This document shows positions 6,508 through 25,392 of a stretch of DNA of 64,000 nucleotides, piece by piece (position 1 is the first letter of the stretch; every line of letters starts with the position of its first letter). The stretch is taken from NCBI RefSeq assembly GCF_900230215.1, contig NZ_LT907982.1:1736001-1800000 (forward strand). Direction: 5' to 3'. Under the pieces are notes generated by a model that saw nothing but the letters and a program-made list of their open reading frames with translations, was not told the origin of the DNA and did no database searches. The position numbers and the translations under genes are program-made. This stretch comes from Jatrophihabitans sp. GAS493. Lineage in GTDB: Bacteria; Actinomycetota; Actinomycetes; Mycobacteriales; Jatrophihabitantaceae.

Positions 6508-6525
6508 GTCGACCATCTAGTTGGG
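6508..6525. promoter_or_regulatory. weak copy of the CCAACY-N4-RGTTGG operator
   Basis: The right arm AGTTGGG is perfect but the left arm GTCGACC matches only 4 of 7 positions. It lies about 110 bases upstream of the SDR start on the minus strand, in a divergent promoter region that has a better copy at 6586-6603. Only the context makes it worth listing. Confidence 0.3.
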
Positions 6526-6585
6526 TACGGTTGGCGGGTCTTGCGCAGACCAATCGTGCATCGGCGTTCGTCTCTCCTCTTCACA

Positions 6586-6603
6586 GTCAACCCCTCGGTT
6601 GGG
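6586..6603. promoter_or_regulatory. candidate regulon operator (GTCAACC-N4-GGTTGGG)
   Basis: Inverted repeat GTCAACCCCTCGGTTGGG; five of seven arm positions pair. It is one of seven similar 18-bp sites in the 5.6-21 kb island and lies 71 bases before the TTG start of the luciferase-like gene. Confidence 0.55.
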
Positions 6604-6674
6604 TACGCTCGCTCGAAGAGGCACGGCCGGGCCCCGGACGGAACCCGGCCTCCCGAAGTCAACGGAGGATTTCC

Positions 6675-7538
6675 TTGAAGCTTGCCGGTACGGGCGTATG
6701 GAGCTTTCCGCTTCGCTACGGCGATCCGGCGGAGGCCGCGGAGGCGACGACTGAGCTGGAGGAACTCGGGTTCAGTGCGGTGTGGATTCCCGACGTCGGT
6801 GGGCCGCTATTCGATGCGCTCGACAGCATGTTGCGGGCCACCGATCGCATTGTCATCGCGAGCGGAATCCTGAATCTCTGGATGCATACCCCGCAAGAGA
6901 CCGCCGAACAGTTCTCGATCCTGACCTCGAAGTACGGCGATCGCTTCCTCATGGGCATCGGGGTGAGTCATGCGCCGGCGATCGACGCGATCGTTGAACC
7001 GGGGCTCTACCGCAACCCGCTGGGTGCGATGGTGACGTTCCTGGACGGCCTCGATGCGGCCGATACGCCAGTTCCGCGGGAGTCCCGGCTGCTCGCTGCG
7101 CTCGGGCCGAAGATGCTCGGACTCGCCGCCAGCCGAGCCGGCGGTGCACACCCCTACCTGGTGAGTCCGGAGCACACCGCGCTGGCCCGGGAGGCTCTTG
7201 GCCCCGGCGCGCTGCTGGCGCCGGAGCAGACGGTCATCTTCTGCAAGGACCGGCAAGGGGCACGCGACATCGGCGCCCACTGGCTCGGCCAGTACCTGCA
7301 GATGCCGAACTACGCGAACAGCGTGCAGCGGCTGGGATTCACTCGAGAGGATGTCGACACCGTCTCGGATCGACTCTTCGACTCCCTCATCGCGTGGGGC
7401 GATGAAGACGACATTGTGGCTCGGATTTCCGAGCACACTGACGCCGGTGCGGATCACGTATGTGCGCAAGTTCTGACGGCTGATCTCACCGCACTGCCGC
7501 GGGTCGAGTGGCGCCGGTTGGCCGCTGCGGTGGCATAG
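6675..7538 (+). CDS. luciferase-like F420-type oxidoreductase
   Basis: 287 residues, luciferase-like TIM-barrel family. The opening LKLAGTGVWS, the LEELGFSAVWIPD segment and IVIASGILN are typical of actinobacterial putative F420-dependent oxidoreductases. The start is TTG at 6675, preceded at six bases by GGAGGA; the open frame continues far upstream but that part has no family resemblance. Monocistronic, between divergent and convergent neighbours. Likely a hydride-transfer step on a pathway intermediate; the cofactor (F420 or FMN) is inferred from family only. Confidence 0.8.
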   Translation: MKLAGTGVWSFPLRYGDPAEAAEATTELEELGFSAVWIPDVGGPLFDALDSMLRATDRIVIASGILNLWMHTPQETAEQFSILTSKYGDRFLMGIGVSHAPAIDAIVEPGLYRNPLGAMVTFLDGLDAADTPVPRESRLLAALGPKMLGLAASRAGGAHPYLVSPEHTALAREALGPGALLAPEQTVIFCKDRQGARDIGAHWLGQYLQMPNYANSVQRLGFTREDVDTVSDRLFDSLIAWGDEDDIVARISEHTDAGADHVCAQVLTADLTALPRVEWRRLAAAVA

Positions 7539-7567
7539 GCCGTGCTGCCGCCGGTAGAGGAGATTCG

Positions 7568-8371
7568 CTAGTAGCGGGTTAGCAGACGTCGCCTAAGGGC
7601 ACTCGCGTCCGCGTCGGTCCAGCCCTGGGATCGTAGCCACTCCGAGACGCCGCCGTGGATCTCATCGGCCCGCTCCAAGAAGCCGCGCATCGTCTCCGGA
7701 CGGGGGCGCTGTTGCTCGATCAGGTCGTCGTCAATGGTGATTGCCGCCCTGCCCGCGTAGGTCGGCTTCGCCGCGAGTCGGGTGATGATGAGCTCGATCC
7801 GCTCCGCGGTCAGGGCGTAGTCCGCAACGACGGCATCCCGGTCGACCCCGACCTCGGTGAGCGCCATGGCGACGACGACACCGGTGCGGTCCTTACCGGC
7901 GGCGCAGTGCACCAGAGTCGCACCGTCGGTTCGGGCGATCAGCCGTAGCGCCTGCAGTATGGAGTCCGGCCGCTCGTCAAGGTACTTGAAGTACACGCTG
8001 CCCGCACTGCGATCGGCCTCCCTATCACCGGTGGGGGTGCGGCCCTGCCAGGGGAGAACCGCCGGCTCGTCGTCGCCCGCGGTGATCTCCGGTTCGTCGA
8101 AGAGGGAGAGGTGATGGACGGTGACCAGTGGTTCCTCGCGTAGCGGTCCGTGACCCTCGCCGTTCACCTCGAAGCTGGTGCGCAGATCGACGATGGTGCG
8201 CACGCCGACCTCGTCGACGAGCCGGCGCACGTCCGGATTGCTCAGCTCCTGGACACTGTCCGAGCGCAGCAGCGCCCGTGGCCGCACCACTTGGCCGTCA
8301 GTGGCCGGCAGTGAGCCCAGGTCGCGGACGTTCACCGCCCCGTCCAGTTCGATCCATCGAATTGCCGTCAT
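7568..8371 (-). CDS. tyrosine/lipid phosphatase (Y_phosphatase3 type)
   Basis: 267 residues. The phosphatase loop HCAAGKDRTG (His155, Cys156) is the C-x5-R signature of the PtpB/LipA-like dual-specificity and phosphoinositide phosphatases, and the N-terminal N-V-R-D-L-G motif is also typical. Acts on phosphotyrosine, phosphoserine or lipid phosphate; the target here is unknown. A nearly perfect regulon operator lies 40 bases upstream of its ATG, so it appears to be co-controlled with the catabolic genes, which is unexpected for a phosphatase. No signal peptide is evident. Confidence 0.85.
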   Translation of the reverse strand: MTAIRWIELDGAVNVRDLGSLPATDGQVVRPRALLRSDSVQELSNPDVRRLVDEVGVRTIVDLRTSFEVNGEGHGPLREEPLVTVHHLSLFDEPEITAGDDEPAVLPWQGRTPTGDREADRSAGSVYFKYLDERPDSILQALRLIARTDGATLVHCAAGKDRTGVVVAMALTEVGVDRDAVVADYALTAERIELIITRLAAKPTYAGRAAITIDDDLIEQQRPRPETMRGFLERADEIHGGVSEWLRSQGWTDADASALRRRLLTRY

Positions 8372-8410
8372 GACCTGAAACTATAGGACAAATGTGAATC
8401 CCAGATTAAT

Positions 8411-8428
8411 GCCAACTGTCTAGTTGGC
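8411..8428. promoter_or_regulatory. best copy of the regulon operator
   Basis: GCCAACTGTCTAGTTGGC: perfect 7-bp inverted arms around a 4-base centre. It lies 40 bases upstream of the phosphatase ATG and defines the consensus of the other sites. Confidence 0.7.
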
Positions 8429-8441
8429 AACTGGCAACGGT

Positions 8442-9470
8442 TCAGGATGCGCGGTCGATGGTGTCGCGCAGACGCTGTGCACGTTCCACGATCATTGGAA
8501 TCACCAGCGGCCAGAACGACAGTCGCTCATCAGAGATCTCGCCGGCCTCATGGGCGACGACCCCGCGAAGCACGATGGAGCCGATCTTCGCCGCCTCGGC
8601 TACTTCATACCACTGCACGTCGTCCGCGGCGCGGCCGGTGATCCGCTGCCAGATGTCGATCGCTTCGGCGCGCGGGGGGAAACCGGGCAGAGAGTAGAAG
8701 TCGAAGCCGGGCAGTCCCATCTCATTCAGGCTCGGGTCCGCGGGCAGCCAATACAGCATGTAGGCCAGATCGGCCAGCGGATCGCCGTTGTAGCACATTT
8801 CCCAGTCAAGCAGTGCGCTGAGCTTGCCGTCTCTCCACATGACATTCGCAATCTTGCTGTCACCGTGGACCAAGGTGGCCGGTCCGCTGGCCTTCAGGCC
8901 GCGAGCGAAGATCTCGTCCAGCAGTTCGATGAGAATCCGGCCGTACTTGGCTGACGCGGTGCCTTTTGCGGTGTCCGCGACGGTGAGGTCATACCAACGG
9001 CGGTATGCCTCGGTAGCCGACAGCGGGCTGCCGAGCGTGGCCGCCGGAGGCGCCTTCGAGACATTCGAGAATGCACTTATCCACTGCTCGCCGACCGAGT
9101 GCCGAAGTTCAGGCGTGCCATCGGTCAGCCACGCGGGCGCCTCCAGTTCGAAGGACGCTCCGGGAAGGAGTTCCAGCAGGTAGAACGGTCGTCCGATGTA
9201 GGACGGGTCCTCCGACCAGCCGAACACTTTCGGGACCGGCAGTCCTGGCAGCGCTGCCCCCACCGCGGCCAGCACGTCGTGCTGCGCGTGCATGTCGTAC
9301 GGCGGCAACAGTCCGGTACCGGACGGCGGCATGCGAACGACCACGTCCGTGCCGCGCAGTAGGTAAGTCTCGTTCGAGAATCCGGCGGAGACCGTGACCA
9401 CCTCGGTGACCGATCCGGGACGGCCCAGAAACCGTTCGATACCTGTGATCAGGTTGTTGTCAAGCGACAT
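8442..9470 (-). CDS. APH-type phosphotransferase family protein
   Basis: 342 residues of the aminoglycoside-phosphotransferase/choline-kinase-like fold. Kinase motifs are the catalytic loop VHGDSKIANVMW and the metal-binding DWEMCYNGDPLADLAY. Members of this subfamily often sit in fatty-acid, sterol and terpenoid degradation clusters, sometimes fused or next to acyl-CoA dehydrogenases (FadE36-like), and probably phosphorylate a small hydroxylated metabolite. No acyl-CoA dehydrogenase domain is present here. The ATG at 9470 is in a divergent promoter region with the CoA-transferase gene. Substrate unknown. Confidence 0.8.
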   Translation of the reverse strand: MSLDNNLITGIERFLGRPGSVTEVVTVSAGFSNETYLLRGTDVVVRMPPSGTGLLPPYDMHAQHDVLAAVGAALPGLPVPKVFGWSEDPSYIGRPFYLLELLPGASFELEAPAWLTDGTPELRHSVGEQWISAFSNVSKAPPAATLGSPLSATEAYRRWYDLTVADTAKGTASAKYGRILIELLDEIFARGLKASGPATLVHGDSKIANVMWRDGKLSALLDWEMCYNGDPLADLAYMLYWLPADPSLNEMGLPGFDFYSLPGFPPRAEAIDIWQRITGRAADDVQWYEVAEAAKIGSIVLRGVVAHEAGEISDERLSFWPLVIPMIVERAQRLRDTIDRAS

Positions 9471-9515
9471 AGCCCATACCTCTCAGAAGACTGCGACCGT
9501 CACAGACGCCCCGTT

Positions 9516-9522
9516 CCCAACC
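9516..9522. promoter_or_regulatory. half-site CCCAACC of the regulon motif
   Basis: A good left arm (CCCAACC) 46 bases upstream of the APH-family start; the matching right arm is absent (GAGCGTC). Listed as a weak possible site only. Confidence 0.2.
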
Positions 9523-9656
9523 AACCGAGCGTCTGGAATCACGATGAGAATGCACCACATTTCCAGTGGGGTCAACGTATCGCCTCCGACGCCCGTGAGC
9601 GGGCAGCATTTCGGGGGCCAGCCACTTCGATGAGGTCGCCTCGGCGCTCCGGCGTT

Positions 9657-9674
9657 GCCAACCGGCTGTTTGGT
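9657..9674. promoter_or_regulatory. candidate regulon operator (GCCAACC-N4-GTTTGGT)
   Basis: GCCAACCGGCTGTTTGGT; five of seven arm positions pair. It ends 16 bases before the ATG of the CoA-transferase gene, so a bound repressor would cover the promoter or the transcript start. Confidence 0.5.
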
Positions 9675-9690
9675 CATTAATGTGCGCGTC

Positions 9691-10809
9691 ATGGGACCTC
9701 TAAGTGGCATACGTATTGTCGAACTCGCCGGTATCGGGCCCGGCCCACACGCAGCGATGATCCTGGCCGACCTCGGCGCGGACGTGGTGCGGATCGACCG
9801 GCCGTCCGGTGGCCTCAAGCTCGGGTCCGAGATCGTCGACCCGATGTTGCGCGGCCGGCGTCGGGTAACCGCGGATCTGAAGACACCCGAGGGGCGCGAG
9901 ACAGTGCTGAGCCTGGTCGAGCGCGCGGACGTGCTCATCGAGGGTTACCGGCCCGGCGTGACGGAGCGGCTCGGTGTCGGACCGGAGGACTGCGCCGCCC
10001 GCAACCCGCGCCTGGTGTACGCGCGGATGACCGGCTGGGGTCAGGATGGTCCGCTGGCCAACGCGGTAGGCCATGACATCAACTACATCTCACTCACCGG
10101 GGCGCTGCACGCGATCGGGCGCCCCGGCGAGAAGCCGGTCGTACCCCTGAACCTGATCGGCGACTTTGGTGGCGGCTCGATGTTGCTGGTCATCGGGGTG
10201 CTGGCCGGTGTCCTGGAGGCGCGGCTGTCAGGGCAGGGGCAGGTCGTCGACGCTGCGATGATCGATGGCGCCTCGATCCTCACGCAGATGGTGTGGGCGC
10301 TGCTGCCGACCGGCGATTGGGTCGATGAGCCCGGCAGTAACCTCCTCGACGGGGCCGCGCCGTTCTATGACACCTATACCTGCTCCGACGGACGACACAT
10401 CGCGGTCGGCGCTATCGAGCCGCAGTTCTATAGCGCGCTGCTGGACGGACTTGGACTGGATGCGGCCGAACTGGCACCACAGATGGAGCGAGAACACTGG
10501 CCCGCGACCAAGGCAAGGTTCGCCGAGATCTTCGCGACCAAGACCCGCGACGAATGGTCCGCCCAGTTCGCGGACGTGGACGCGTGCGTGACGCCGGTTC
10601 TCGGCTTCACCGAGGTTGCGGCGAATGAGCAGGTCGCGGCTCGCAAGATCCTGGTGGAGCAGGACGGCCTGTTGCAGGTCGCTCCGGCACCACGGTTCTC
10701 TCGCACTGTGCCCCGGATGCCGGAGATCGATGACACGATCTTTGATGTCCGCGACGTCCTGGACGGCTGGTCCACCGCGCCGCATATGGCAGCGGCGGTG
10801 ACGTCATGA
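9691..10809 (+). CDS. CaiB/BaiF CoA-transferase family, alpha-methylacyl-CoA racemase-like
   Basis: 372-residue family III CoA-transferase fold. [31 protein letters not shown] opens the protein, and [11 protein letters not shown] plus [10 protein letters not shown] correspond to the His and Asp catalytic region of alpha-methylacyl-CoA racemase, the enzyme that epimerises 2-methylacyl-CoA thioesters before beta-oxidation of isoprenoid and steroid side chains. The ATG at 9691 is chosen because the upstream in-frame ATG at 9655 would put the operator motif inside the gene; there is no strong ribosome site, so leaderless translation is possible. It overlaps the ferredoxin gene by ATGA. Confidence 0.85.
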
Positions 10810-11042: not shown

Positions 11043-11082
11043 CTCATTGACCGGGTCGTCCGGCCGCGAGTACTGTGCGAAG

Positions 11083-11100
11083 TCCAACCAACCGGTTGGG
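11083..11100. promoter_or_regulatory. candidate regulon operator (TCCAACC-N4-GGTTGGG)
   Basis: TCCAACCAACCGGTTGGG, six of seven arm positions paired; it also contains the 12-bp perfect palindrome CCAACCGGTTGG. It lies 26 bases before the SDR ATG, heading the SDR-ligase-NDMA dehydrogenase-P450 operon. Confidence 0.65.
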
Positions 11101-11126: not shown

Positions 11127-11966
11127 ATGACAGAGTCGGCAGCGATTCCGCAGCGGTTTGACGGTCGGGCGGCGTTGGTCACCGGCGGCGGCTCCGGAAT
11201 CGGGTTCGGCTGCGCCCAGCGGTTGCTCGCGGAGGGTGCCCACGTAACGATCGCCGGTCGCAACGAGGTCAAGCTCAAGGCAGCCGTCGACGCCCTCGGC
11301 GAGCGAGCGCAGTACGTCGTTGCCGACATCTCTGACGAGGACGCGGTTCTGCGTGCCGTGGAGATCGCCGGGCAGCCGCTCGGCGCGCTGCACCATGCGG
11401 TCGCCAATGCTGGCTTCGGCACCGGCGCCCCGGTTCTGGTCCACCCATTGGACTCCTGGAAGTCCGTTCTGGACACCAATCTCAACGGCACCATGTTGAC
11501 GCTCAAACACGCCGGGCGTGCGATCGCCGAGTCGGGCGGCGGGTCGATCGTGGCGATGTCGTCGATCGCCGGGATCCTGACCCACCGCTTCATGGCGGCC
11601 TACAACGTCTCCAAGGCTGGCATCGAGATGCTGGTGCGAACCGCTGCTGACGAACTCGGCGTGCTCAACGTGCGGGTCAACGCGCTACGCCCGGGCCTGG
11701 TTCCCACCGACGCCTCGGTCGACCTGACCGACAGCCCAGACGTTCGGCAGGACTACCTGAACAAGATGCCGATCCCGCGGATCGGTACGACTGCGGACAT
11801 CGGCGCAGCCGCGGCCTTCCTGCTCTCCGATGAGGCCTCCTGGATCACGGGTGTCGCCCTTAGCGTCGATGGCGGGCACCACCTGCGTGGTGGCCCGAAT
11901 ATCGACTCGATCATCGAGAGCGCGACGAGCCACGACTTCGTGGCCACCGTCGGATTGCGGATGTAG
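11127..11966 (+). CDS. short-chain dehydrogenase/reductase
   Basis: 279-residue classical SDR: TGGGSGIG cofactor loop, VANAGFG, catalytic Ser and YNVSK, and the C-terminal S-x-D-G-G block. TTTTTTGGAGTGG lies just before the ATG at 11127 (GGAG at eight bases). First gene of a four-gene operon with a FadD19-like ligase, NDMA-dependent alcohol dehydrogenase and P450, under a regulon operator. Likely oxidises a hydroxyacyl-CoA or ring hydroxyl of the same substrate; exact specificity is not readable. Confidence 0.87.
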   Translation: MTESAAIPQRFDGRAALVTGGGSGIGFGCAQRLLAEGAHVTIAGRNEVKLKAAVDALGERAQYVVADISDEDAVLRAVEIAGQPLGALHHAVANAGFGTGAPVLVHPLDSWKSVLDTNLNGTMLTLKHAGRAIAESGGGSIVAMSSIAGILTHRFMAAYNVSKAGIEMLVRTAADELGVLNVRVNALRPGLVPTDASVDLTDSPDVRQDYLNKMPIPRIGTTADIGAAAAFLLSDEASWITGVALSVDGGHHLRGGPNIDSIIESATSHDFVATVGLRM

Positions 11967-11978
11967 GGAAGCGCGAAC

Positions 11979-13607
11979 GTGGCAAACTTCAATTTCGCGC
12001 GGCTGATCGAGGCGGTCGCCGATCAGGCGCCTGACCGGATCGCCGTCTCGGCCTCCGATGGTACGAGTTACAGCTACGGCGAACTCGACGTCCGCGGCAA
12101 TCGATTCGGACACACGCTGATGAGTCTGGGCGCCGGCTACGGCGATCGGGTGGCCATCCTGGCGCACAACCGGGCCGAGTGGCTCGACGTCATGATCGGC
12201 TGCTTCAAGCTCGGTGCTCTGATCGTCAACGTCAACTATCGCTATACCGCCGGTGAGATAGCCCATGTACTGCGCGACAGTGGTGCGGCGGTGGTCGTCG
12301 CGGAGGCTGAGTTCGCCGGTGTGCTGCACGATGCGCTACAGCAGGCGGGTACAAGTCCGCGCATTCTCTTCCTGGATCAGGATGCCCCGGAGGAGTCGGC
12401 CTACTCGGCCCGGGTGGCGTCGGCTGATGCCGGACGGGACTTTCCCCCGCACGAGGGTGTCGATGAGTACCTGCTGTACACCGGGGGCACGACCGGGTTG
12501 CCAAAGGGCGTCGTGTGGACGCAGGAGGATCTGGTCAACGGCGCTGTCGCCTACGGCTGGGCCGTCGGCGGGACCGGGTTCACCGACCCATCCGCGATCG
12601 CGCAGCGGCTCACCGAAGAGGTGCCGGTGGTGATGGCGGTGGCACCGCTGATGCATGGCAACGGCCAGTGGGCGATGCTGCGCGCCTGGACGCTGGCCGG
12701 CACCGCAGCTATCTGGGCCGGTCGCCGATTCGAGGCGGACAAGTTGCTGGATTCGCTGGAGCGGATGCAGGTCAACATCGTGTCCTTGGTGGGTGACTCG
12801 ATGGCCAAGCCCCTGTTGGCCGAGATCGAACGCGACCCGAACCGGTGGGATCTCTCCGCGCTGAGTGCGATCGGCTCCGGCGGCGCCGTGATGTCGCCGC
12901 AGACGAAGGCCGCGATCCGGCGAATGCTTCCGCACGTGACCGTCATCGACGGCTACGGGGGCTCCGAGTTCGGCACCGCCGGCACGTTGACCGGTGAGGA
13001 CGACGCGACATTCCCCAGATTTGACGCCGCGGCCGACCGCGTTCAAGTGGTGCGCGACGATCTGTCTCCGGTGACGGCCGGCGAACAGGGTCTGGTCGCG
13101 GTCGGCGGCGCGGTCGCCAGCCGATACTGGAACGACCCGGTCAAGTCAGCGCAGGTGTTCCGCGTCGACGGCACCGGCAAGCGCTGGGCGACACCCGGCG
13201 ATTCGGCGATCCGCAATAGTGACGGCACTTTCTCCCTGTTGGGCCGCGGATCTCTCGCGATCAACACCGGCGGCGAGAAGGTCTACCCGGACGAGGTCGA
13301 AACCGCGCTAAAGACCTACCCGGCCATCCGCGACGCGCTCGTGGTCGGCGTGCCCGATCCGCTGTACGGGCAGCGGATCGCCGCTGTCGTCAGCCGTAAC
13401 GAGAGCGCGGAGGGCGTGTACGGTGCCGACCTCTCAGTGGCGCAGCTGCAGGACCACCTGCGCTCGCGGCTGGCCGGCTTCAAGATCCCGCGCCTGGTCG
13501 CAGTGGTCAGCGAGATCCGACGTTCGCCGGCCGGCAAGGCCGACTACCTCTGGGCCCGCCAACAGGTGACCCAGGACGCAATCACGACGAGTGGGAGTAC
13601 GAAATGA
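11979..13607 (+). CDS. acyl-CoA synthetase, FadD19-like
   Basis: 542-residue ANL ligase. The P-loop variant LLYTGGTTGLPKGVVW and the INTGGEKVYPDEVE hinge resemble FadD19 and related actinobacterial ligases that activate C26-type steroid or isoprenoid side-chain acids. The start is GTG at 11979, 12 bases after the SDR stop. Its stop overlaps the ATG of the alcohol dehydrogenase (ATGA). It probably makes the CoA thioester after the P450/dehydrogenase pair has oxidised a terminal methyl group to the acid. The substrate is inferred from family and context, not shown. Confidence 0.88.
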   Translation: MANFNFARLIEAVADQAPDRIAVSASDGTSYSYGELDVRGNRFGHTLMSLGAGYGDRVAILAHNRAEWLDVMIGCFKLGALIVNVNYRYTAGEIAHVLRDSGAAVVVAEAEFAGVLHDALQQAGTSPRILFLDQDAPEESAYSARVASADAGRDFPPHEGVDEYLLYTGGTTGLPKGVVWTQEDLVNGAVAYGWAVGGTGFTDPSAIAQRLTEEVPVVMAVAPLMHGNGQWAMLRAWTLAGTAAIWAGRRFEADKLLDSLERMQVNIVSLVGDSMAKPLLAEIERDPNRWDLSALSAIGSGGAVMSPQTKAAIRRMLPHVTVIDGYGGSEFGTAGTLTGEDDATFPRFDAAADRVQVVRDDLSPVTAGEQGLVAVGGAVASRYWNDPVKSAQVFRVDGTGKRWATPGDSAIRNSDGTFSLLGRGSLAINTGGEKVYPDEVETALKTYPAIRDALVVGVPDPLYGQRIAAVVSRNESAEGVYGADLSVAQLQDHLRSRLAGFKIPRLVAVVSEIRRSPAGKADYLWARQQVTQDAITTSGSTK

Positions 13608-14737
13608 AGACACGCGCTGCGATCCTTGCCGGAGTGGGCGAGAAGTGGATAGTCGACGAAGTGGAGCTCGGGACCCCCGGGGCGAACGACGTGATCGTGG
13701 AGATCAAGGCCGCCGGGCTCTGCCACTCCGAGGAACACATGGCCAGTGGCGACATGGTGTTCACGCAGGACATCCTCGACGCCATGGGGATGCCCGAGCA
13801 GTTCCCGTTGATCGGCGGCCACGAAGGTTCCGGCGTGGTGGTCGAGGTCGGCGCGGACGTCCGAAAGGTCAAGGTCGGCGATCACGTCTCGACGAGTTTC
13901 ATCCCGTCCTGTGGGATCTGTCGGGCCTGCGTGGGCGGTCGTCAGTATCTGTGTGACCAGGGCTTTGACCTGATGACCACACAGGCTGAGCCCAAGCACT
14001 TCTGGCAAGGCAAGCCGGCGAACACCTACTCCAACCTCGGTACCTTCGCCGAGCACGCCCTCGTGCACGAGAACTCGCTGGTGAAGATCGAGGACCACTT
14101 CCCGTTCGACATCGCGGCGCTGGTCTCCTGCGGTGTGCCGACGGGCTGGGGCTCCGCGGTTGACCGGGCCGGCACTCAGCCGGGCGACGTCGTGGCCGTC
14201 ATCGGCATCGGTGGCATCGGGATCAACGCTGTGCAGGGCGCGAAATCTGTCGGCGCACAGGTAATCATGGCGATCGACCCAGTCGAGTTCAAGAGGCAGA
14301 AGGCCATGGAGTTCGGTGCCACCCACACCGCGGCCACGGTCGAGGAGGCGATGCCGCTTATCCAGGAGCTTTCCCGCGGACGGCTCTGCGACCGGGTCAT
14401 CGTCACTCCGAGCGTGCTGTACGGCGATATTCTCGCGGCCGCCATGTCGATCACCGGCAAGGGCTCCACCTGTGTCGCGACCGCAGTCGCGCCCTATGCA
14501 CAGGCGGAGGTGCCGCTGTCGCTGGTCGACCTCACACTGTGGAACAAGGAGCTCAAGGGCTCGCTCTACGGTTCGACCAACCCGCGCGCGCAGATCCCCA
14601 AGCTGCTGTCGCTCTACGAGTCGGGGCAGCTCAAGTTGGACGAGCTCATCACGCACCGGTACCCGCTCGACGACATCAATTCCGGCTACGACGATCTGCG
14701 CGAGGGCCTGATCCTCCGCGGCGTCATCACCTTCTAA
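13604..14737 (+). CDS. NDMA-dependent (nicotinoprotein) alcohol dehydrogenase
   Basis: 377-residue zinc MDR. GLCHSEEHMASGD and GGHEGSG supply the catalytic zinc ligands and CGICRACVGGRQYLC the structural zinc site. The block G-F-D-L-M-T-T-Q with a following W-Q-G is the pattern of the NDMA-dependent alcohol dehydrogenase family, whose members hold NAD tightly and are known to depend on mycofactocin as the external redox carrier. The mycofactocin biosynthesis cluster is 11 kb downstream. In the operon it follows the ligase and precedes a P450, suggesting oxidation of the P450-made alcohol to the aldehyde. Confidence 0.88.
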   Translation: MKTRAAILAGVGEKWIVDEVELGTPGANDVIVEIKAAGLCHSEEHMASGDMVFTQDILDAMGMPEQFPLIGGHEGSGVVVEVGADVRKVKVGDHVSTSFIPSCGICRACVGGRQYLCDQGFDLMTTQAEPKHFWQGKPANTYSNLGTFAEHALVHENSLVKIEDHFPFDIAALVSCGVPTGWGSAVDRAGTQPGDVVAVIGIGGIGINAVQGAKSVGAQVIMAIDPVEFKRQKAMEFGATHTAATVEEAMPLIQELSRGRLCDRVIVTPSVLYGDILAAAMSITGKGSTCVATAVAPYAQAEVPLSLVDLTLWNKELKGSLYGSTNPRAQIPKLLSLYESGQLKLDELITHRYPLDDINSGYDDLREGLILRGVITF

Positions 14738-14753
14738 GAATCGGAAGTCAGCC

Positions 14754-15989
14754 ATGACAGCTACAGCCACCGAAACGCGAGTCCCGATCGACCTATGGAG
14801 TTCCAGCTCCTTCGCTCACGGTCATCCGGTTGAGCAGTACCACTGGTTGCAGGAGAACGCACCGGTGTACTGGCACGAGGAACCGGACGGCGGTCGTGGG
14901 TTCTGGGCGGTCACCTCGGCCCAGTTGCTCAAAGACGCCAGCGTTCGCCCCAAGACGTTCTCCAGCGCGTCCGGCATGACTATGTACGACCTGCCGCCCG
15001 AGGTGCTGGAGGGCTTGAGGAACTTCCTGATGTTCATGGATCCGCCGCGCCACACCGGTCTTCGCAAGCTCGTCAACTCCGAGTTCACCCCGCGCGGAGC
15101 CCAGCGATGGGCTGAGCCGATCGACAAGGTGGCCGACTCGATCATCGACAGTGTCTGCGAGAAGGGCGAATGCGAGCTGATGTCCGAGGTCGCGGCACTG
15201 CTGCCCACCTCGGTGGTCACTACTCTGCTCGGGGTCGATCGCGAGCAGGGCATCAAGCTCTACGAGCTGGTCGAGATCATGCACTCGGCGCAGGACACCG
15301 TAACCGAGGAGCAGCGCACTGTGGCCCGGGAGGAGATGGTCGCCTTCGGCATGGCGCTACATGCCGCCAAGCTCGCGACGCCGGACGACTCGATGGCCAG
15401 TAACCTCGTGCACGCCGAGCTCGAGGGCCAGGAGCTCAGCGCACTCGACTTTGCCTTGTTCATCCTGCTTCTAGTCAACGCCGGCGAGGACACGGTGCGC
15501 AACCTGACCGGCGGAGCCGTGATCACCCTGCTGGAGCACCCCGAAGTCCTCGCGCGGCTGCGCGATGACACCGAGGCGCTCATGCCTAAGGCTGTCGAGG
15601 AGTTCATCCGCTATCAGAGCCCGGTGACCTACCAGCGCCGGACCGCGACGGAGGACACGCACCTCGGCGACGCCGAGATCAAGCGAGGTGACAAGGTCCT
15701 GCTGTATTACGGCGCGGCCAATCGCGACCCGGCGCTGATCTCTGACCCGGACGCGTTCATCATCGACCGTGACCCGAACCCGCACATGGGATTCGGTGGC
15801 GGCGGCCCGCACTTCTGCCTCGGCGCGCACATAGCTCGCCTGCAGATCAGGGCGATCATGTCACGCATCGTCACCCGCCTGCCGGACCTGCAGCTCGCGG
15901 GCGAGCCGACCTGGTTGGCTTCGAACTTCATCTCGGGTCCGACCTACGTGCCGTTGCGGTTCACGCCGACGCCCAAACGTGGTCTCTAG
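14754..15989 (+). CDS. cytochrome P450
   Basis: 411-residue P450. The I-helix block is AGEDTV near residue 243 (Val where Thr/Ser is usual after the conserved Thr), the K-helix is EEFIRYQSP, and the heme loop is FGGGGPHFCLG with Cys355. It is last in the SDR-ligase-NDMA dehydrogenase operon, 16 bases after the dehydrogenase stop, and ends at a strong bidirectional terminator. In style it fits the group of actinobacterial P450s that hydroxylate terminal methyls of sterol or isoprenoid chains. The ferredoxin at 10806 is a plausible donor. Confidence 0.9.
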   Translation: MTATATETRVPIDLWSSSSFAHGHPVEQYHWLQENAPVYWHEEPDGGRGFWAVTSAQLLKDASVRPKTFSSASGMTMYDLPPEVLEGLRNFLMFMDPPRHTGLRKLVNSEFTPRGAQRWAEPIDKVADSIIDSVCEKGECELMSEVAALLPTSVVTTLLGVDREQGIKLYELVEIMHSAQDTVTEEQRTVAREEMVAFGMALHAAKLATPDDSMASNLVHAELEGQELSALDFALFILLLVNAGEDTVRNLTGGAVITLLEHPEVLARLRDDTEALMPKAVEEFIRYQSPVTYQRRTATEDTHLGDAEIKRGDKVLLYYGAANRDPALISDPDAFIIDRDPNPHMGFGGGGPHFCLGAHIARLQIRAIMSRIVTRLPDLQLAGEPTWLASNFISGPTYVPLRFTPTPKRGL

Positions 15990-16002
15990 CCACAACGACG
16001 AA

Positions 16003-16045
16003 AATCCGCTCGGGGAGTGCCTGCCAGGCACTCCCCGAGCGGATT
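16003..16045. terminator. bidirectional hairpin terminator
   Basis: A perfect palindrome of two 21-base arms around one central base, running from AATCCGCTCG to CGAGCGGATT, between two convergent stop codons (15989 and 16073). T-rich bases follow on each side (TTCGTTT on plus, TTTTCG on minus), so it should end transcription in both directions. Confidence 0.9.
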
Positions 16046-16072
16046 CTTCGTTTGCCAGCCACGCTGGCATGG

Positions 16073-17161
16073 CTACTCGCGCTCGTACTTGCCGGCCTCT
16101 ACGGACGCTGAGAACTTGAACGGCGTGGTCCAGCCATAGGGCTGGTAGTCGAGAGCGATGAGCTCCCATACGCCGTATCCGACCTCGTCGCCGATGCGGA
16201 ACTCGCACAACGCGTCGTGAAGATAGCCATAGGTTCGTGCGTCCTCGGCGTATTCGGCGTTCGACCAGCGTTCCCAACCGTTCTCCGGACGCCCGAGCGC
16301 GGAAGCATACGGATGCGCCAGGTCGACCGGCTTGGGCGCGAAGTAGTTGACGATCGGACCGATCGGCTTGAAGTCCATTGTGAGCTTTTCGCCGGATTCG
16401 GTCTCCAGCACCACCGATCCGCTACGTGGTACCCGCTCGCCGGGGACCAATTCGAAGTCGTGGGAGAGGATGCGCAGGCTCGGCCCCGTACTGTCGGCGT
16501 CGGCGAAACCTCCATTGGAGTACAGGGTTTTCCCGTCCGGGCTCTCAAAGTGGTAGAGGCTCAGCGTCCGGCTCGGGAAGTGGACGCAAGACCAGATCCA
16601 GAACTCCAATGCCTCCCGGATACCCCAAGTGCGATCGCGCACGCCGTACCAGTCGTCAACTTCGTACTTCTTACCGTCGATCTTGAACCAGCCCCGGTGG
16701 GTGCCGGACTGGTGCAGGTGCGCGAAGTCCAGGGAAACATCGCCGTTGTCGTCCTGTACGAAGACCTTCTCGAACTCGAATGGCTGGTGGCGTGCGGTCC
16801 AAAGTAGGTCGATCTCGATGCCCGAGGGGTTCGGAGCCAGCGTGATGCGCCATTGCTTCATCGGTTCGACGATCTCGAAGGCGAATTCGCCGACATCCAT
16901 CCGGGTTCGCTCGCCGGCAATCGGTCGAACGCCGCGCCAGTCGGTCTGGCCGCCGTCGGGGCCGGTGGTGTGCGCTATGACGTAGACGCTTGCGAGGTCG
17001 GTATTGGGCGTCGTGCCCATTCCGCACACAAGAAGCGCCTCTCCATCTGCGCTGTGGACATTGAAGTAGTTGCGTTCCTGCCATTTTGTCGAGCCACCCC
17101 CCGGGACGGCGATGCTATCGCTGCTCTGGTGGATGAAGTAGTCGTCGAGTGGAACCAGCAC
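16073..17161 (-). CDS. lipocalin-like protein of the CrtC/AttH (DUF7064/7065-type) family
   Basis: 362 residues, paralogous to the product at 1804-2934. It carries the same central pattern: G-W-F-K-I-D-G-K-K-Y-E-V followed by the R-D-R-T-W-G-I-R hallmark near residue 180. The start is GTG at 17161 with GAGGAG eight to nine bases upstream. Monocistronic, divergent from the solute-binding lipoprotein, with a regulon operator 54 bases upstream. Relatives act on isoprenoid-type molecules in some cases, but most have no proven reaction; a binding or hydratase role in the pathway is inference. Confidence 0.65.
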   Translation of the reverse strand: MLVPLDDYFIHQSSDSIAVPGGGSTKWQERNYFNVHSADGEALLVCGMGTTPNTDLASVYVIAHTTGPDGGQTDWRGVRPIAGERTRMDVGEFAFEIVEPMKQWRITLAPNPSGIEIDLLWTARHQPFEFEKVFVQDDNGDVSLDFAHLHQSGTHRGWFKIDGKKYEVDDWYGVRDRTWGIREALEFWIWSCVHFPSRTLSLYHFESPDGKTLYSNGGFADADSTGPSLRILSHDFELVPGERVPRSGSVVLETESGEKLTMDFKPIGPIVNYFAPKPVDLAHPYASALGRPENGWERWSNAEYAEDARTYGYLHDALCEFRIGDEVGYGVWELIALDYQPYGWTTPFKFSASVEAGKYERE

Positions 17162-17214
17162 GTGGCTCGTCTCCTCACTGTGGATGCACGGTGGTGAAGG
17201 GGCATATGGGATTT

Positions 17215-17232
17215 CCCAACTGGGTGGTTGGT
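17215..17232. promoter_or_regulatory. candidate regulon operator (CCCAACT-N4-GGTTGGT)
   Basis: CCCAACTGGGTGGTTGGT, five of seven arm positions paired, 54 bases upstream of the lipocalin-like gene on the minus strand. Confidence 0.5.
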
Positions 17233-17368
17233 AACGCTACTGACGGTCAGGGGTTGAGTCAAGTGAAAAGGCGGGATTCCTGCCCTCCTGACGGTCGGGT
17301 GAGACACGACGGTGTAACGGGATCGGTGAAGTGCTTGACAAGGCGACCAGGTCTCGCGATAGTTCGTA

Positions 17369-17386
17369 CCCAACCAGTTAGTTGGG
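17369..17386. promoter_or_regulatory. candidate regulon operator (CCCAACC-N4-AGTTGGG)
   Basis: CCCAACCAGTTAGTTGGG, six of seven arm positions paired, 41 bases before the ATG of the solute-binding lipoprotein. With 17215-17232 it gives each arm of this divergent promoter its own site. Confidence 0.65.
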
Positions 17387-17427
17387 AGGCGTGCGTCACA
17401 GCGACGCCGCCGTGAGAGAGGAATCCA

Positions 17428-18639
17428 ATGATCCGCAGACAGTTCAAATTGGCTACGTTGGCTGTGGGTGGCGTCGCGCTCGCCGCCTCGCTGGCAGCGT
17501 GCAGTTCCTCGGGGGCTTCGAGCGCAGGTTCGGGAAGCAGTGGGGCGACTGCGACGCCGGTGAAGATTATGGTCACGGGGACCCTGTCGAGCCCGAACCT
17601 GTCCTACCCTCAGCAGCAGTCGGGCGCTGAGGCGGCGGCCAAGGCGATCAACGCCAACGGAGGCATCGACGGCCATCCGATTCAAATCGTCGTGTGCAAT
17701 GACGGGCTGGACCCCAACAAGGCCATCGCCTGTGCACAGAAGGCCAAGGATGAGGGCGTCGTCGCGCTCGACGGCGGGATCGAGGAGTTCAGCGCCCAGA
17801 TGTGGCCGAAACTCGAGGCTTCAAACATCCCTTGGGTGGCGCCGGTCGTTATCGCCGCTGACCAGGGCACCAACAAGATGTCCTTCCCGCTCTCGGGCGG
17901 AATCACTGCGGCGTTCATGCAGACAGGCCGTCTGGCCGTCGAGAAGGGCGGCAAGAACGTCGTCATTTTCGAGCACGAGAACTCGCAGGCCAAGTTCACC
18001 GGCGACATCATTGCGCAGGGCGTGAAGTTGGCGGGGGGGACGGTCGTCAAGACCGTCATCTCGAAGCTCGGTAGCACCGACACGTCGGCCGCCGCAGCGC
18101 AGGCAATTGCGGCGCACCCGGACGCGATCGGCTGTGCTTGCAACCAGGGTGACGCGGCCCGGCTCCTGCAGAGCGTTGTCCAGGCCGGCTTCAAGGGCCC
18201 GTTTGCCGGGTCGATCTCCAGCTTCACCAACTCGGATCTGTCGTCGTTGGGCTCGGCCGCGAACCAGATCGTCGCCGGTGCGGACATGCTTGGCCCGGAT
18301 GCGCCAGCTGCGGCCCAGTGGGTCTCGGAGATGAACGCCAATGATTCCAAGGCTGAGCAGGACAACATCTCCGGTGGCGCCTGGCTGGCTGTGCATGTCG
18401 TCGCGGATCTGCTCAAGGGGCAGTCCGACCTGTCGTCCAAGAATCTGACGAGCATCCTCAACACCTCGCCGTCGATCAACATCTACGGCATGGCCGGTGA
18501 CAGCGTTACCTTCACCAAGCCCGGCCCGATTCCCGCGACGCCGCGCGTCGTGAACATGAACGCCATGTCCTATGGCGTCAAGGACGGGAAGTTCGCCGCG
18601 ACTGCGACGACGTTCACCAACCCGCTGACCGGCCAGTAG
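17428..18639 (+). CDS. ABC transporter solute-binding lipoprotein (branched-chain amino-acid/LivK type)
   Basis: 403 residues. A lipoprotein signal peptide ends in the lipobox LAAC with Cys25, followed by a Ser/Gly-rich linker. The mature part has the type I periplasmic-binding fold (VKIMVTGTLSS, A-x-x-AINANGGIDG, repeated Rossmann-like segments), as in receptors for branched-chain amino acids, amides and, in actinobacteria, many aromatic or terpenoid substrates. GAGAGGAA precedes the ATG. It should capture substrate outside the membrane. No permease or ATPase gene is nearby, so it is an orphan in this window. A regulon operator lies just upstream. Confidence 0.88.
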   Translation: MIRRQFKLATLAVGGVALAASLAACSSSGASSAGSGSSGATATPVKIMVTGTLSSPNLSYPQQQSGAEAAAKAINANGGIDGHPIQIVVCNDGLDPNKAIACAQKAKDEGVVALDGGIEEFSAQMWPKLEASNIPWVAPVVIAADQGTNKMSFPLSGGITAAFMQTGRLAVEKGGKNVVIFEHENSQAKFTGDIIAQGVKLAGGTVVKTVISKLGSTDTSAAAAQAIAAHPDAIGCACNQGDAARLLQSVVQAGFKGPFAGSISSFTNSDLSSLGSAANQIVAGADMLGPDAPAAAQWVSEMNANDSKAEQDNISGGAWLAVHVVADLLKGQSDLSSKNLTSILNTSPSINIYGMAGDSVTFTKPGPIPATPRVVNMNAMSYGVKDGKFAATATTFTNPLTGQ

Positions 18640-18656
18640 CCTCAACAGCCCGGCAC

Positions 18657-18689
18657 GGCCGGATCGGCGTCTTCACTGCCGATCCGGCC
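18657..18689 (+). terminator. hairpin terminator after the solute-binding gene
   Basis: Inverted repeat GGCCGGATCGGC / GCCGATCCGGCC with a 9-base loop, 18 bases after the stop. There is no T-run, as is common in high-GC actinobacteria. Confidence 0.75.
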
Positions 18690-19001
18690 ATGCTGCGTGT
18701 GACGACCGTTGGTGCGGGGATGAGTATCGCTCGACGTGGGCGGTCCAGGACCGTACCGATGCCGGGCATCGGTACGGTCCGAATAGTGACGAGTCGGCCG
18801 AGATCAACGGCTTAAGCGGGAGAACGCGGAGCCGCGGGAAGCGCGCCGAAATGCGTGGGGCCGGGACGATCTGCGCAGTCCGGGGTTGAGTCGAAGCGTG
18901 ATTGTCGATGGCATTGTGGCGTCGCGCTCGGACTGGTTCGGGGATCGGCCGACGCACGAATGGCGGAGCCCAGCCGGGTTAGGTTGCAGGGACCCGCTGG
19001 C
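18690..19001. other. no gene seen
   Basis: About 310 bases between the terminator and the stop of the minus-strand gene. Short open frames exist on both strands but none has a ribosome site or recognisable text. Confidence 0.5.
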
Positions 19002-19967
19002 TCAGTACGGATCCGGCAGTCCGGCGTCCCGTACTGCGACGGGCTCGCGAGTGGACACCTGAGTGACCTGCTCGAGTATTCCGAACCCGGTCACCCCGGA
19101 TCGCACGAAGTCGAACGGGGTGAAGGCGCGCCGCACCCAACCGTCGCCGTCTTCGCTGGGCCGTACCAGGGCGAGGTGCTGATCCGGGCTGCGCAACCCG
19201 CCGAGCACGGTGACGTCTGTCCGTCCGCGCAGCTGGCAGATCATGCGTTGCGGAGCACTGCGCTCAGCTCCTGCGGTACGTAGGGCCGACACCGCCAACA
19301 AGGCAATATCGGTCTGCGCCTGCAGTGCCGCTGCCCCGGTGTGTCCGCCGGCTCCGTTGGATCCAGCGGAGCCATCGGCTGTGTCGGGACAGGCTACGAG
19401 CATTGCCGACCCGTCCTGAAACGCGGCTTGCAGCCGGACACCGGCCTGGTTGGTTGAAGCGCCGAAGTCCCCGGGTTCTATCCATGCCTGCCCGCTGATC
19501 GCATAGACGACACTGCCAGGCGCGAACGATCCGGTGACGCGGTAGTTCCGGGAACCCTGCAACACGTTCTCTGAGGAATCGCCCATTCGTGGGACGGGCT
19601 GGGAGTTGGGCTCCAGTGTCAGGTCCGCCGTGAGCGGAACACGGAATTGCACCTCTGCGTCGCCATCACGCCGATGCTCCGCGCAGGAAAGGTCCTCCGC
19701 GGTGTGGGCCATCAGCTTGATGTGCTGGGTGGCTCCTTCGACGGACCAGCTGATATCGGGGCGGTGTCTTGCAGGCGCGATATCCGCGTCGTACCACAAG
19801 GTCACCCCGTCCGCGATGAACACCACGATCCGCGCGAGCGACGCGCGGGGGCCCCCTGAAAATGTCAGGGCGATGATCGCTCCGGACTGGTCATCCATCA
19901 GGACCAGATCAAGCGCGCCGCTCCCGGGCTCTATGTCTGTCGAGCTACTGATTTCAGCGGCACTCAA
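19002..19967 (-). CDS. hypothetical protein, possible diverged lipocalin-like paralogue
   Basis: 321 residues, TTG start at 19967 with GAGGAG five bases upstream. I do not recognise it firmly. Its middle segment (YRVTGSFAPGSVVYAISG then EPGDFG) follows the layout G-x-V-x-G-x-x-Y-x-V-x-G of the lipocalin-like proteins at 1804 and 16073, but the R-D-x-x-W-G hallmark is replaced by E-P-G-D-F-G. A Gly/Ser/Ala-rich stretch (DGSAGSNGAGGHTG) lies near residue 200. It is divergent from the Rieske oxygenase gene across an operator site. Relation to the family is inference. Confidence 0.6.
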   Translation of the reverse strand: MSAAEISSSTDIEPGSGALDLVLMDDQSGAIIALTFSGGPRASLARIVVFIADGVTLWYDADIAPARHRPDISWSVEGATQHIKLMAHTAEDLSCAEHRRDGDAEVQFRVPLTADLTLEPNSQPVPRMGDSSENVLQGSRNYRVTGSFAPGSVVYAISGQAWIEPGDFGASTNQAGVRLQAAFQDGSAMLVACPDTADGSAGSNGAGGHTGAAALQAQTDIALLAVSALRTAGAERSAPQRMICQLRGRTDVTVLGGLRSPDQHLALVRPSEDGDGWVRRAFTPFDFVRSGVTGFGILEQVTQVSTREPVAVRDAGLPDPY

Positions 19968-20040
19968 TGCGACTCCTCGGTAAATTTAACGGGTGTGGGC
20001 GTGCGGCATGTTGACGCGCGCCCCGATCTAGCTCATGATA

Positions 20041-20058
20041 GCCAACTATACAGTTGGT
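20041..20058. promoter_or_regulatory. candidate regulon operator (GCCAACT-N4-AGTTGGT)
   Basis: GCCAACTATACAGTTGGT, six of seven arm positions paired. It sits between the divergent hypothetical gene (19967) and the Rieske gene (20084), 25 bases from the latter. Confidence 0.65.
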
Positions 20059-25374: not shown

Positions 25375-25392
25375 ATAACGTATCCGCTATTC

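What the first reader, a model, noticed from the sequence alone, without database searches (positions are those of the whole stretch)
6508..20058. A shared 18-bp inverted repeat marks one regulon across the catabolic island
Seven intergenic sites fit yCCAACY-N4-RGTTGGr: 6586, 8411, 9657, 11083, 17215, 17369 and 20041, with weaker copies at 6508 and 9516. The one at 8411 has perfect 7-bp arms. All lie 16-71 bases before start codons, and the divergent promoter at 17162-17427 has one site for each gene. The controlled units would be the F420-type oxidoreductase, phosphatase, racemase-ferredoxin, SDR-ligase-NDMA dehydrogenase-P450, a lipocalin-like gene, solute-binding lipoprotein and Rieske oxygenase. 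None of the TetR genes in the window sits beside such a site; those have different palindromes. I do not recognise this as the KstR or KstR2 box. It looks like a TetR-type regulon whose regulator is outside the window.
Basis: partly seen in the sequence, partly recalled or inferred. Interest (0 to 1): 0.85.

Follow-up and report, generated by a model that had tools for sequence, protein, structure and literature searches.

The report
One operator controls a catabolic island
A short mirrored DNA sequence repeated before most gene blocks of an 80-kb degradation island is very probably the binding site of one TetR-type switch protein encoded inside that island but just outside the window, and the same switch and sites recur together in other soil actinobacteria.

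Summary
The exact core CCAACY-N4-RGTTGG occurs 10 times in the 4.88-Mb genome, all in one 80-kb block, five left of the window. With a fuller 22-bp matrix there are 25 sites, all centred between genes, before 32 of 37 first genes of the island and 0 of 80 in the flanks. One further strong site lies 1.7 Mb away before a ChsH2/thiolase-type operon. The proposed regulator is outside the window: a 194-aa TetR gene 35 kb to the left, inside the island. Its orthologues in Dactylosporangium, Nocardia, Actinomadura, Mumia, Actinophytocola, Nakamurella and two metagenome bins lie near such sites in 14 of 15 loci, 8 with one within 150 bp before the regulator gene. Best reading: a KstR2-like repressor of a steroid/terpenoid-type acyl-CoA pathway, probably released by a CoA thioester. 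Binding, ligand and substrate are inferred. New member of a known kind.

The parts
6506..6527 (.). operator copy TTGTCGACCATCTAGTTGGGTA, second site before the F420 LLM oxidoreductase
   Evidence: 22.7 bits
6584..6605 (.). operator copy CAGTCAACCCCTCGGTTGGGTA before the F420 LLM oxidoreductase
   Evidence: one core mismatch, 18.4 bits
8409..8430 (.). operator copy ATGCCAACTGTCTAGTTGGCAA before the Y_phosphatase3 gene
   Evidence: exact core, 28.9 bits
9655..9676 (.). operator copy TTGCCAACCGGCTGTTTGGTCA before the CaiB/racemase-type CoA-transferase
   Evidence: one core mismatch, 22.2 bits
11081..11102 (.). operator copy AGTCCAACCAACCGGTTGGGTA before SDR-CoA ligase-NDMA dehydrogenase-P450
   Evidence: exact core, 22.4 bits
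17213..17234 (.). operator copy TTCCCAACTGGGTGGTTGGTAA, nearer to the minus-strand DUF7064/7065 gene
   Evidence: exact core, 27.7 bits
17367..17388 (.). operator copy TACCCAACCAGTTAGTTGGGAG, nearer to the plus-strand solute-binding protein gene
   Evidence: exact core, 25.9 bits
20039..20060 (.). operator copy TAGCCAACTATACAGTTGGTAA before the Rieske oxygenase, right-most site of the island (the proposed regulator gene lies left of the window, G000:C1:1700478-1701062, and cannot be given in window coordinates)
   Evidence: exact core, 31.6 bits
6675..7538 (+). F420-dependent LLM oxidoreductase (start codon uncertain)
   Evidence: Pfam; TIGR03620 over cut-off
7568..8371 (-). Y_phosphatase3 family phosphatase
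8442..9470 (-). APH-type kinase
   Evidence: nearest solved chain 9o56
9690..10809 (+). CaiB/racemase-type CoA-transferase (start near 9690 judged by eye)
   Evidence: CoA_transf_3
11127..15989 (+). operon SDR, CoA ligase, NDMA-dependent alcohol dehydrogenase, P450
   Evidence: TIGR03989 over cut-off
16073..17161 (-). DUF7064/7065 protein resembling 25-phosphosteroid lyase
   Evidence: Pfam; PDB 9fzn E 2.4e-29
17428..18639 (+). periplasmic solute-binding protein
   Evidence: Peripla_BP_6
20072..21163 (+). Rieske oxygenase related to 3-ketosteroid 9alpha-hydroxylase KshA
   Evidence: KshA_C and Rieske; PDB 4qdc E 1.1e-27

Best explanation
The repeat is the operator of one local regulon. A dimer of the TetR protein g042 (194 aa, encoded 35 kb left of the window at G000:C1:1700478-1701062) sits on the 22-bp site TANYCAACYRNNYRGTTGRNTA close before the start codons and blocks transcription of most units of an 80-kb island plus one distant operon. 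The fold and the genes suggest that a CoA thioester made in the pathway binds the protein and frees the promoters. The genes suggest breakdown of a steroid- or terpenoid-like compound: a KshA-like Rieske oxygenase, P450s, nine CoA ligases, four pairs of acyl-CoA dehydrogenases (one tested is nearest to steroid-type enzymes), two single-chain acyl-CoA carboxylases, and APH-type kinases with phosphosteroid-lyase-like partners that could dehydrate alcohols by phosphorylation and elimination. Shown by computation: site clustering, promoter placement, and co-occurrence of regulator and operator across genera. Inferred: direct binding, repression rather than activation, the ligand class, the substrate.
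For: Clustering: 10 of 10 exact cores of the genome lie in 80 kb; of 21 places matching the 22-bp pattern with up to 2 mismatches, 20 lie in the island, two of these being overlapping registers of one site. Held-out test with a matrix from the seven reader sites: 17 sites in the unseen left 60 kb, 0 in 40+83 kb flanks, 0 in 7 control stretches of 20 kb. Placement: 25 of 25 site centres intergenic, before 32 of 37 island first genes versus 0 of 22 and 0 of 58 in the flanks. Regulator: g042 is the only island protein in which the Pfam scans found a DNA-binding domain; of 15 orthologue loci (14 at 50-65% identity, one a 72% fragment) 14 hold at least one site over 18 bits and 8 hold one within 150 bp before the regulator gene; with the seven-site matrix these loci have 45 sites in 270 kb versus 1 in 1.35 Mb of shuffled sequence. 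Of 50 genes behind operators there, 37 (6 of them the regulator itself) have an island homologue of at least 40% identity and 13 do not. Homologues in 25 loci of one unnamed genus that I take for Mycobacterium have a motif-like site of at least 9 bits in their own promoter in 24 of 25 cases, versus 2 of 174 other windows of the 29 loci and 40 of 5,800 shuffles, with best similarity in both directions and a very similar recognition helix. Fold: the model of an orthologue (pLDDT 86.9) has KstR2 as first and AibR with isovaleryl-CoA as third match. Distant site before a CoA ligase-ChsH2 OB fold-thiolase operon.
Against: g042's own promoter in this genome has only a 6.0-bit match, near background, so autoregulation here is weak or absent. 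The operator shape is not exclusive: of 20 lone sites fetched in other genomes, by eye about 8 precede ArsR-like genes and 5 lie beside TetR-MFS pairs. For the M. tuberculosis protein Rv0158, the likely counterpart of the mycobacterial homologues (named by recalled synteny), a ChIP-seq study reports a quite different GC-rich motif, YGGCGGBGMCGGCGG (PMC10501769, passages). In most mycobacterial promoters the site can also be read as CAAC-N2-GTTG, and four further homologue loci of other genera (left out of the 24 of 25) scored -7.0, 10.4, -6.7 and -10.1. Four of the 15 orthologue loci have no site over 13 bits upstream of the regulator gene. Another TetR-like gene of G000 (1208883-1209509) has a one-mismatch core before it, though only 1.2 bits over 22 bp. 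I have no binding or expression data for this organism.
Confidence: 0.88

Rival explanations
1. The operator is real, but another regulator encoded elsewhere in the genome (a different TetR, or a MarR- or ArsR-type protein) binds it; g042 is a passenger gene.
For: g042 has no strong site in its own promoter; the same operator shape precedes ArsR-like and other TetR genes in other actinobacteria; G000 has 58 TetR matches, and one weak one (1208883-1209509) has a one-mismatch core before it. Other regulator families were not searched genome-wide.
Against: None of the 15 places outside the island that match the 22-bp pattern with up to 3 mismatches lies within 4.9 kb of any of the 58 TetR matches; the core near 1208883 scores 1.2 bits. 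Orthologues of g042 in several genera lie near the operators, 8 of 15 with one within 150 bp before them.
Confidence: 0.08
2. The protein acts as an activator or dual regulator rather than a repressor.
For: Some sites lie over 90 bp from the start codon.
Against: Many sites lie 20-70 bp from the start codon, where a promoter would be covered; KstR and KstR2, nearest in theme, are described as repressors (PMC3068626, passages).
Confidence: 0.15
3. The repeats are mobile or replicative sequence elements (small inverted repeats, recombination sites), not operators.
For: Palindromic, many copies in one island.
Against: Only the palindrome is shared in the sites printed, flanks differ; all 25 are centred between genes and 32 of 37 first genes have one; copies recur before homologous genes in other genera.
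Confidence: 0.01
4. The CCAAC/GTTGG repeats are chance in GC-rich DNA.
For: None beyond GC content.
Against: 0 of 100 shuffles; 18 exact CAAC-N6-GTTG in the island versus 1 in 123 kb of flanks, while N4, N5, N7 and N8 spacings give 1, 2, 0, 3 versus 0, 1, 0, 3.
Confidence: 0.001

Closest known systems
KstR2 (TetR repressor of steroid-ring genes)
   Same: TetR protein, palindromic operator between divergent genes, acyl-CoA-type catabolic genes; first Foldseek match of the model of a g042 orthologue (4w97, TM 0.78).
   Different: KstR2 box is AnCAAGnnCTTGnT (PMC3068626, passages), no exact copy in the island; about 24% identity between KstR2 and the modelled orthologue.
KstR (cholesterol regulon)
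   Same: Large TetR regulon of steroid-type catabolic genes.
   Different: No match of this genome reaches the NCBIfam KstR cut-off (best 46.9 of 280 bits); operator half-sites and spacing differ (KstR box recalled).
Rv0158-type TetR of mycobacteria
   Same: Best matches of g042 among 394 sampled genomes of the class (29-34% identity), best similarity in both directions, very similar recognition helix, motif-like site in own promoter.
   Different: Reported ChIP motif is GC-rich and unlike this operator; reported ligand methylmalonyl-CoA; tied to propionate and redox balance (PMC10501769, passages). The name Rv0158 rests on synteny recalled by me.
AibR (isovaleryl-CoA-responsive TetR)
   Same: Similar fold to the orthologue model (5k7h, TM 0.70); suggests an acyl-CoA ligand.
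   Different: 23% identity to the modelled orthologue; its operator and regulon were not compared.
25-hydroxysteroid kinase / 25-phosphosteroid lyase module of anaerobic sterol degradation
   Same: Island gene at 16073-17161 matches 25-phosphosteroid lyase 9fzn (E 2.4e-29); APH/EcKL-type kinase genes lie in the same island.
   Different: Described for an oxygen-independent route in Sterolibacterium denitrificans (PMC8449060, PMC11061730, passages); here it sits with P450 and Rieske oxygenase genes. A second DUF7064/7065 gene (g065) has no PDB match at E 0.01.

Membership tests
TetR family regulator (g042) | TetR_N helix-turn-helix over the curated cut-off | tested here: met
   56.6 bits versus 24
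TetR family regulator (g042) | All-helical two-domain fold | tested here: met
   tested on a 64% identical orthologue, not on g042 itself: AlphaFold2 model with nine helices; top PDB matches are TetR proteins
TetR family regulator (g042) | Binds a palindromic operator | not testable with these tools
   Only co-occurrence of gene and palindrome shown
KstR regulon | KstR protein in the genome | tested here: not met
   Best match 46.9 bits, cut-off 280
KstR2 regulon | Operator AnCAAGnnCTTGnT | tested here: not met
   0 exact copies in the island; 3 one-mismatch copies there and 3 in flanks
Rv0158-type regulators | Best similarity in both directions | tested here: met
   g042 is the best G000 hit of one mycobacterial member (3e-24, next 6.5e-15); members are the best hits of g042 among 394 sampled genomes; closer orthologues exist in other genera
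Rv0158-type regulators | Same operator | tested here: inconclusive
   Motif-like site in 24 of 25 own promoters, but published ChIP motif differs
NDMA-dependent alcohol dehydrogenase, 13604-14737 | TIGR03989 over cut-off | tested here: met
   476 bits versus 440
25-phosphosteroid lyase, 16073-17161 | Sequence similarity to the solved enzyme | tested here: met
   E 2.4e-29, residues 3-184 of 362
25-phosphosteroid lyase, 16073-17161 | Eliminates phosphate from a phosphosteroid | not testable with these tools
   needs enzyme assay
KshA, 20072-21163 | Rieske and KshA_C domains | tested here: met
   both over cut-off
KshA, 20072-21163 | 9alpha-hydroxylation of a 3-ketosteroid | not testable with these tools
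   only moderate similarity, 4qdc E 1.1e-27

The most novel reading that the evidence does not exclude
A so far undescribed, horizontally spread actinobacterial regulon, independent of KstR, in which one TetR protein of the KstR2-like, CoA-sensing type controls most of about 60 genes for aerobic breakdown of an isoprenoid or steroid-like compound, using kinase plus phosphosteroid-lyase-type dehydration together with oxygenases and an NDMA-dependent (mycofactocin-type) dehydrogenase, and whose relative in mycobacteria may have been assigned the wrong operator.
Probability: 0.3. Interest if true: 0.75.

Novelty: new member of a known kind. Interest (0 to 1): 0.6.

Why it matters
It turns an unannotated 80-kb island into one testable unit: one regulator, one 22-bp operator, about 26 sites. 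The same pair marks related clusters in at least six other named genera, so the operator can be used to pick out pathway genes in those genomes, and a derepressed deletion strain could reveal the substrate. It also gives a specific, checkable operator prediction for a group of mycobacterial TetR proteins whose published motif differs, and it places phosphosteroid-lyase-like genes beside oxygenases.

Tried and rejected
Considered and dropped. (1) Rubber-type pathway with latex-clearing protein: the genome has three MPAB_Lcp_cat matches, none in the island. (3) Using the lone operator copies of other genomes to name the regulator: of 20 fetched, by eye about 8 lead to ArsR-like genes, 5 to TetR-MFS pairs and 4 to mycobacterial dehydrogenase pairs, so the operator shape alone does not identify the protein. 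(4) The protein g047 as a regulator: no Pfam domain, PDB similarity to thioesterases. (5) KstR and KstR2 boxes. In one search the recalled KstR-like pattern with 3 mismatches was more frequent than in shuffles (21 versus 5.4, 0 of 100 shuffles), but 18 of 21 matches lie inside called genes and 7 of 21 in the island part; the shorter recalled form shows no excess in the island (0 exact and 11 one-mismatch places, versus 2 and 17 in a 1.5 times longer flank). (6) Weaker matches elsewhere in G000: the best 22-mer scores in the seven other stretches were 9.3-16.7 bits, four of the seven inside called genes. (7) Literature: searches listed no paper that I recognised as describing this operator or regulon. 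Searches returned nothing, one search listed 12 of 1,067, and figure logos (PMC4482099 Table 2, motif X of PMC6593523, of which I read passages and section 8) cannot be read here, so a printed description cannot be excluded. (8) The organism's name was not obtained; may leave out the genome's own record.

Limits. Gene calls come from my own hexamer script with hand corrections; start codons are approximate. In one search I left out three short or weak calls (g086, g088, g090), moved three starts (g083, g085, g087) and added the left-most LLM gene with a start set by hand, because its longest ORF would begin at the operator 1676366; its last in-frame start codon in the stretch examined, at 1676459, also leaves the site outside. 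That gene is not among the 37. One site (1705783) overlaps the called start of g047. The start of the distant operon is uncertain: the site is about 30 bp before the ATG and about 110 bp before the start chosen by my gene finder. Orthologue loci are not all independent (two pairs share a contig). Thresholds were 17.5 bits, 18 bits and 16 bits; the weak copy at 9521 was dropped. ArsR, SRPBCC, MFS and dehydrogenase labels are by eye. The genomes are unnamed samples; some are incomplete.


Full report
WHAT WAS CHECKED. The window is G000:C1:1736001-1800000 of a single-contig 4,879,921-bp genome. In the whole genome the exact core occurs 10 times, all between 1,676,366 and 1,756,057; five of the ten lie left of the window. 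The same pattern read backwards occurs 3 times. With up to one mismatch there are 44 places, 21 of them in those 80 kb and 23 in the remaining 4.8 Mb; the backward control gives 41.

THE FULL MOTIF. Aligning 20 sites gives a symmetric 22-mer, TANYCAACYRNNYRGTTGRNTA. With up to two mismatches this pattern has 21 places in the genome, 20 in the island (two are overlapping registers of one site) and one at 3,453,266. With exactly three mismatches there are 5 more in the island and 14 outside; the backward control has 18 matches at up to three. At 16 bits it finds 17 sites in the 60 kb left of the window, 8 in the 21-kb island part of the window, and none in 40 kb and 83 kb of flanks or in seven 20-kb control stretches. 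The six-base spacer between CAAC and GTTG is specific: 18 exact copies in the island and 1 in 123 kb of flanks, while spacers of 4, 5, 7 and 8 give 1, 2, 0 and 3 versus 0, 1, 0 and 3. A two-base spacer gives 9 versus 2, at least partly because some sites contain an inner CAAC-N2-GTTG.

PLACEMENT. At 17.5 bits there are 25 sites in the island and none in the flanks. All 25 are centred between genes, although only 6,455 of 80,900 bp are intergenic. They lie before 32 of 37 first genes examined in the island, and before 0 of 22 and 0 of 58 first genes left and right of it. The five first genes without a site are g031, g035 and g040 (possibly internal to operons), the TetR gene g042 and its divergent neighbour g043. 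Four of the 25 sites show a second, overlapping register four bases away at over 5 bits, but only one of these is strong (21.4 bits); overlapping registers also recur in orthologue loci and might mean two dimers on one site, which is speculation.

THE DISTANT SITE. The one strong site outside the island (25.4 bits) lies about 30 bp before the ATG of a CoA ligase followed by two ChsH2-type OB-fold proteins and a thiolase-like protein, the last one only weakly matched. ChsH2 and a thiolase-like partner are known from steroid side-chain cleavage (family names from Pfam; the pathway role is recalled). On its other side is an integrase-core transposase piece.

THE REGULATOR. Pfam scans of the island's proteins found enzymes, transporters, a few proteins without a match, and one DNA-binding protein, g042, at 1,700,478-1,701,062. 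A scan of GTDB genomes with g042 gave 16 loci. Fifteen I take as orthologues: 14 at 50-65% identity and one 72% fragment at a contig end. They come from Dactylosporangium (two genomes, two copies each), Actinophytocola, Nocardia (three), Mumia, Actinomadura (three), Nakamurella and two metagenome-assembled genomes. The sixteenth is a 31% match in Roseibium. Of the 15, 14 have at least one site over 18 bits in the fetched DNA (the exception is the fragment on a 6.3-kb contig); the Roseibium locus has none. Eight of 15 have one within 150 bp before the regulator gene: L088, L089, L090, L092, L093, L094, L097, L099. With the seven-site matrix these loci hold 45 sites in 270 kb; five shuffled versions of each hold 1 in 1.35 Mb. 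Of 50 genes behind those sites 37 have island homologues of at least 40% identity, such as g044, g065, g087, g059, g063, g038, g068, g034 and the regulator itself, and 13 have none; g044 homologues are 74-80% identical in L088-L091, L093 and L094. I take this as strong evidence that g042 and its orthologues read this operator. The helix-turn-helix stretch GLNKGTLYHYY is invariant among the 14 orthologues aligned. Against it: g042's own promoter has only a 6.0-bit match.

MYCOBACTERIAL RELATIVES. In 394 sampled genomes of the class the best matches of g042 besides itself (29-34% identity) come mostly from one unnamed genus. By neighbours that look like pntB and Rv0157A I recognise genus and gene as Mycobacterium and Rv0158; that naming is recalled. 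Searched back with one of them, the best G000 protein is g042 (3e-24; next 6.5e-15). Of 25 such promoters 24 hold a site of at least 9 bits, against 2 of 174 other windows of the 29 loci fetched and 40 of 5,800 shuffles; the four loci of other genera scored -7.0, 10.4, -6.7 and -10.1. Most of the mycobacterial sites can also be read with a two-base spacer, so the exact operator there is open. Published work contradicts a simple transfer: passages of PMC10501769 report methylmalonyl-CoA binding and a ChIP motif YGGCGGBGMCGGCGG. PMC4482099 lists a predicted motif for Rv0158 (e-value 5.6e-31), but its logo is not readable here (passages).

OTHER USES OF THE SAME SHAPE. Isolated copies occur in other genomes: 47 of 393 genomes of the class, G000 included, have a place with up to one mismatch; none has more than two except G000 with eight; in the family 4 of 24, G000 included. 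Of 20 such places fetched, by eye about 8 lie before ArsR-like genes, 5 beside TetR-MFS pairs and 4 before mycobacterial aldehyde dehydrogenase-SDR pairs. So the operator shape alone does not prove the protein; co-occurrence does the work.

WHAT IT CONTROLS. The island encodes nine CoA ligases, enoyl-CoA hydratases, four pairs of acyl-CoA dehydrogenases, thiolases, SDRs, two single-chain biotin-dependent carboxylases, LLM oxidoreductases, two P450s, a branched-chain-type ABC transporter, hydantoinase/acetone-carboxylase-like subunits, kinases and a Rieske oxygenase. Nearest solved relatives of those tested: long-chain acyl-CoA carboxylase 4rcn (1089 bits) for g036, KshA for the Rieske protein, the acyl-CoA dehydrogenases Tcur3483 and 4x28 for g044 (I recall 4x28 as a steroid side-chain enzyme), and 25-phosphosteroid lyase for 16073-17161. 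In Sterolibacterium a kinase and a then putative lyase dehydrate a tertiary 25-hydroxysteroid (PMC8449060 and PMC11061730, passages). Hence a steroid- or terpenoid-like substrate with an isoprenoid chain is the best guess, at about even odds. The genome has no KstR over the family cut-off. In the 23 other genomes of the family, several incomplete, the best-scoring matches to g042 have 29-31% identity and none listed exceeds 36%, while distant genera have 50-65% copies, which points to horizontal spread.

MECHANISM. A model of the L087 orthologue (mean pLDDT 86.9) is closest to KstR2 (TM 0.78) and, in third place, to AibR with isovaleryl-CoA; both sense CoA thioesters (for KstR2 recalled). Many sites lie 20-70 bp before start codons, consistent with a repressor covering the promoter. 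My estimate: operator of one regulon 0.97; read by g042 0.88; repressor 0.8; CoA-thioester ligand 0.6; steroid or terpenoid substrate 0.5.

Noticed in passing
window 24712-31305: A mycofactocin-type cluster (MftR by Pfam, radical SAM with SPASM, FMN-dependent dehydrogenase) lies right of the island, whose regulon contains an NDMA-dependent alcohol dehydrogenase; no operator copy over 18 bits occurs there.
   Followed up: partly
L028 3631-7287 (G000:C1 about 3449631-3453287): Distant operon CoA ligase, two ChsH2-type OB-fold proteins, thiolase-like protein with a strong operator before it, next to an integrase-core transposase piece.
   Followed up: partly
L086 and L094; L087 and L093: Two Dactylosporangium genomes carry two different copies of the regulator, each with operators, on one contig a few tens of kb apart.
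   Followed up: no
L044-L047, L052, L053: In several actinobacteria two operator-like palindromes 43-47 bp apart precede an ArsR-like gene and SRPBCC-like genes (judged by eye): an apparently independent use of the same operator shape.
   Followed up: no
L037, L038, L040, L041: Four Mycobacterium-like genomes have one strong operator before an aldehyde dehydrogenase-SDR pair (by eye), on the same contig as the Rv0158-type gene (12-103 kb apart), a possible target of that protein.
   Followed up: no
L015 4722-7529: A 935-aa protein fuses branched-chain-type ABC permease parts and an ATPase; it follows g060, which has an operator before it.
   Followed up: no
L015 11827-16328: HyuA/HyuB-like pair with an acetone-carboxylase gamma-like domain, nearest NCBIfam match acetophenone carboxylase delta (below cut-off), behind an operator.
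   Followed up: no
window 1-64000: The recalled KstR-like pattern TAGAACnnGTTCTA with up to 3 mismatches is more frequent than in shuffles (21 versus 5.4), mostly inside genes; unexplained, perhaps codon usage.
   Followed up: partly
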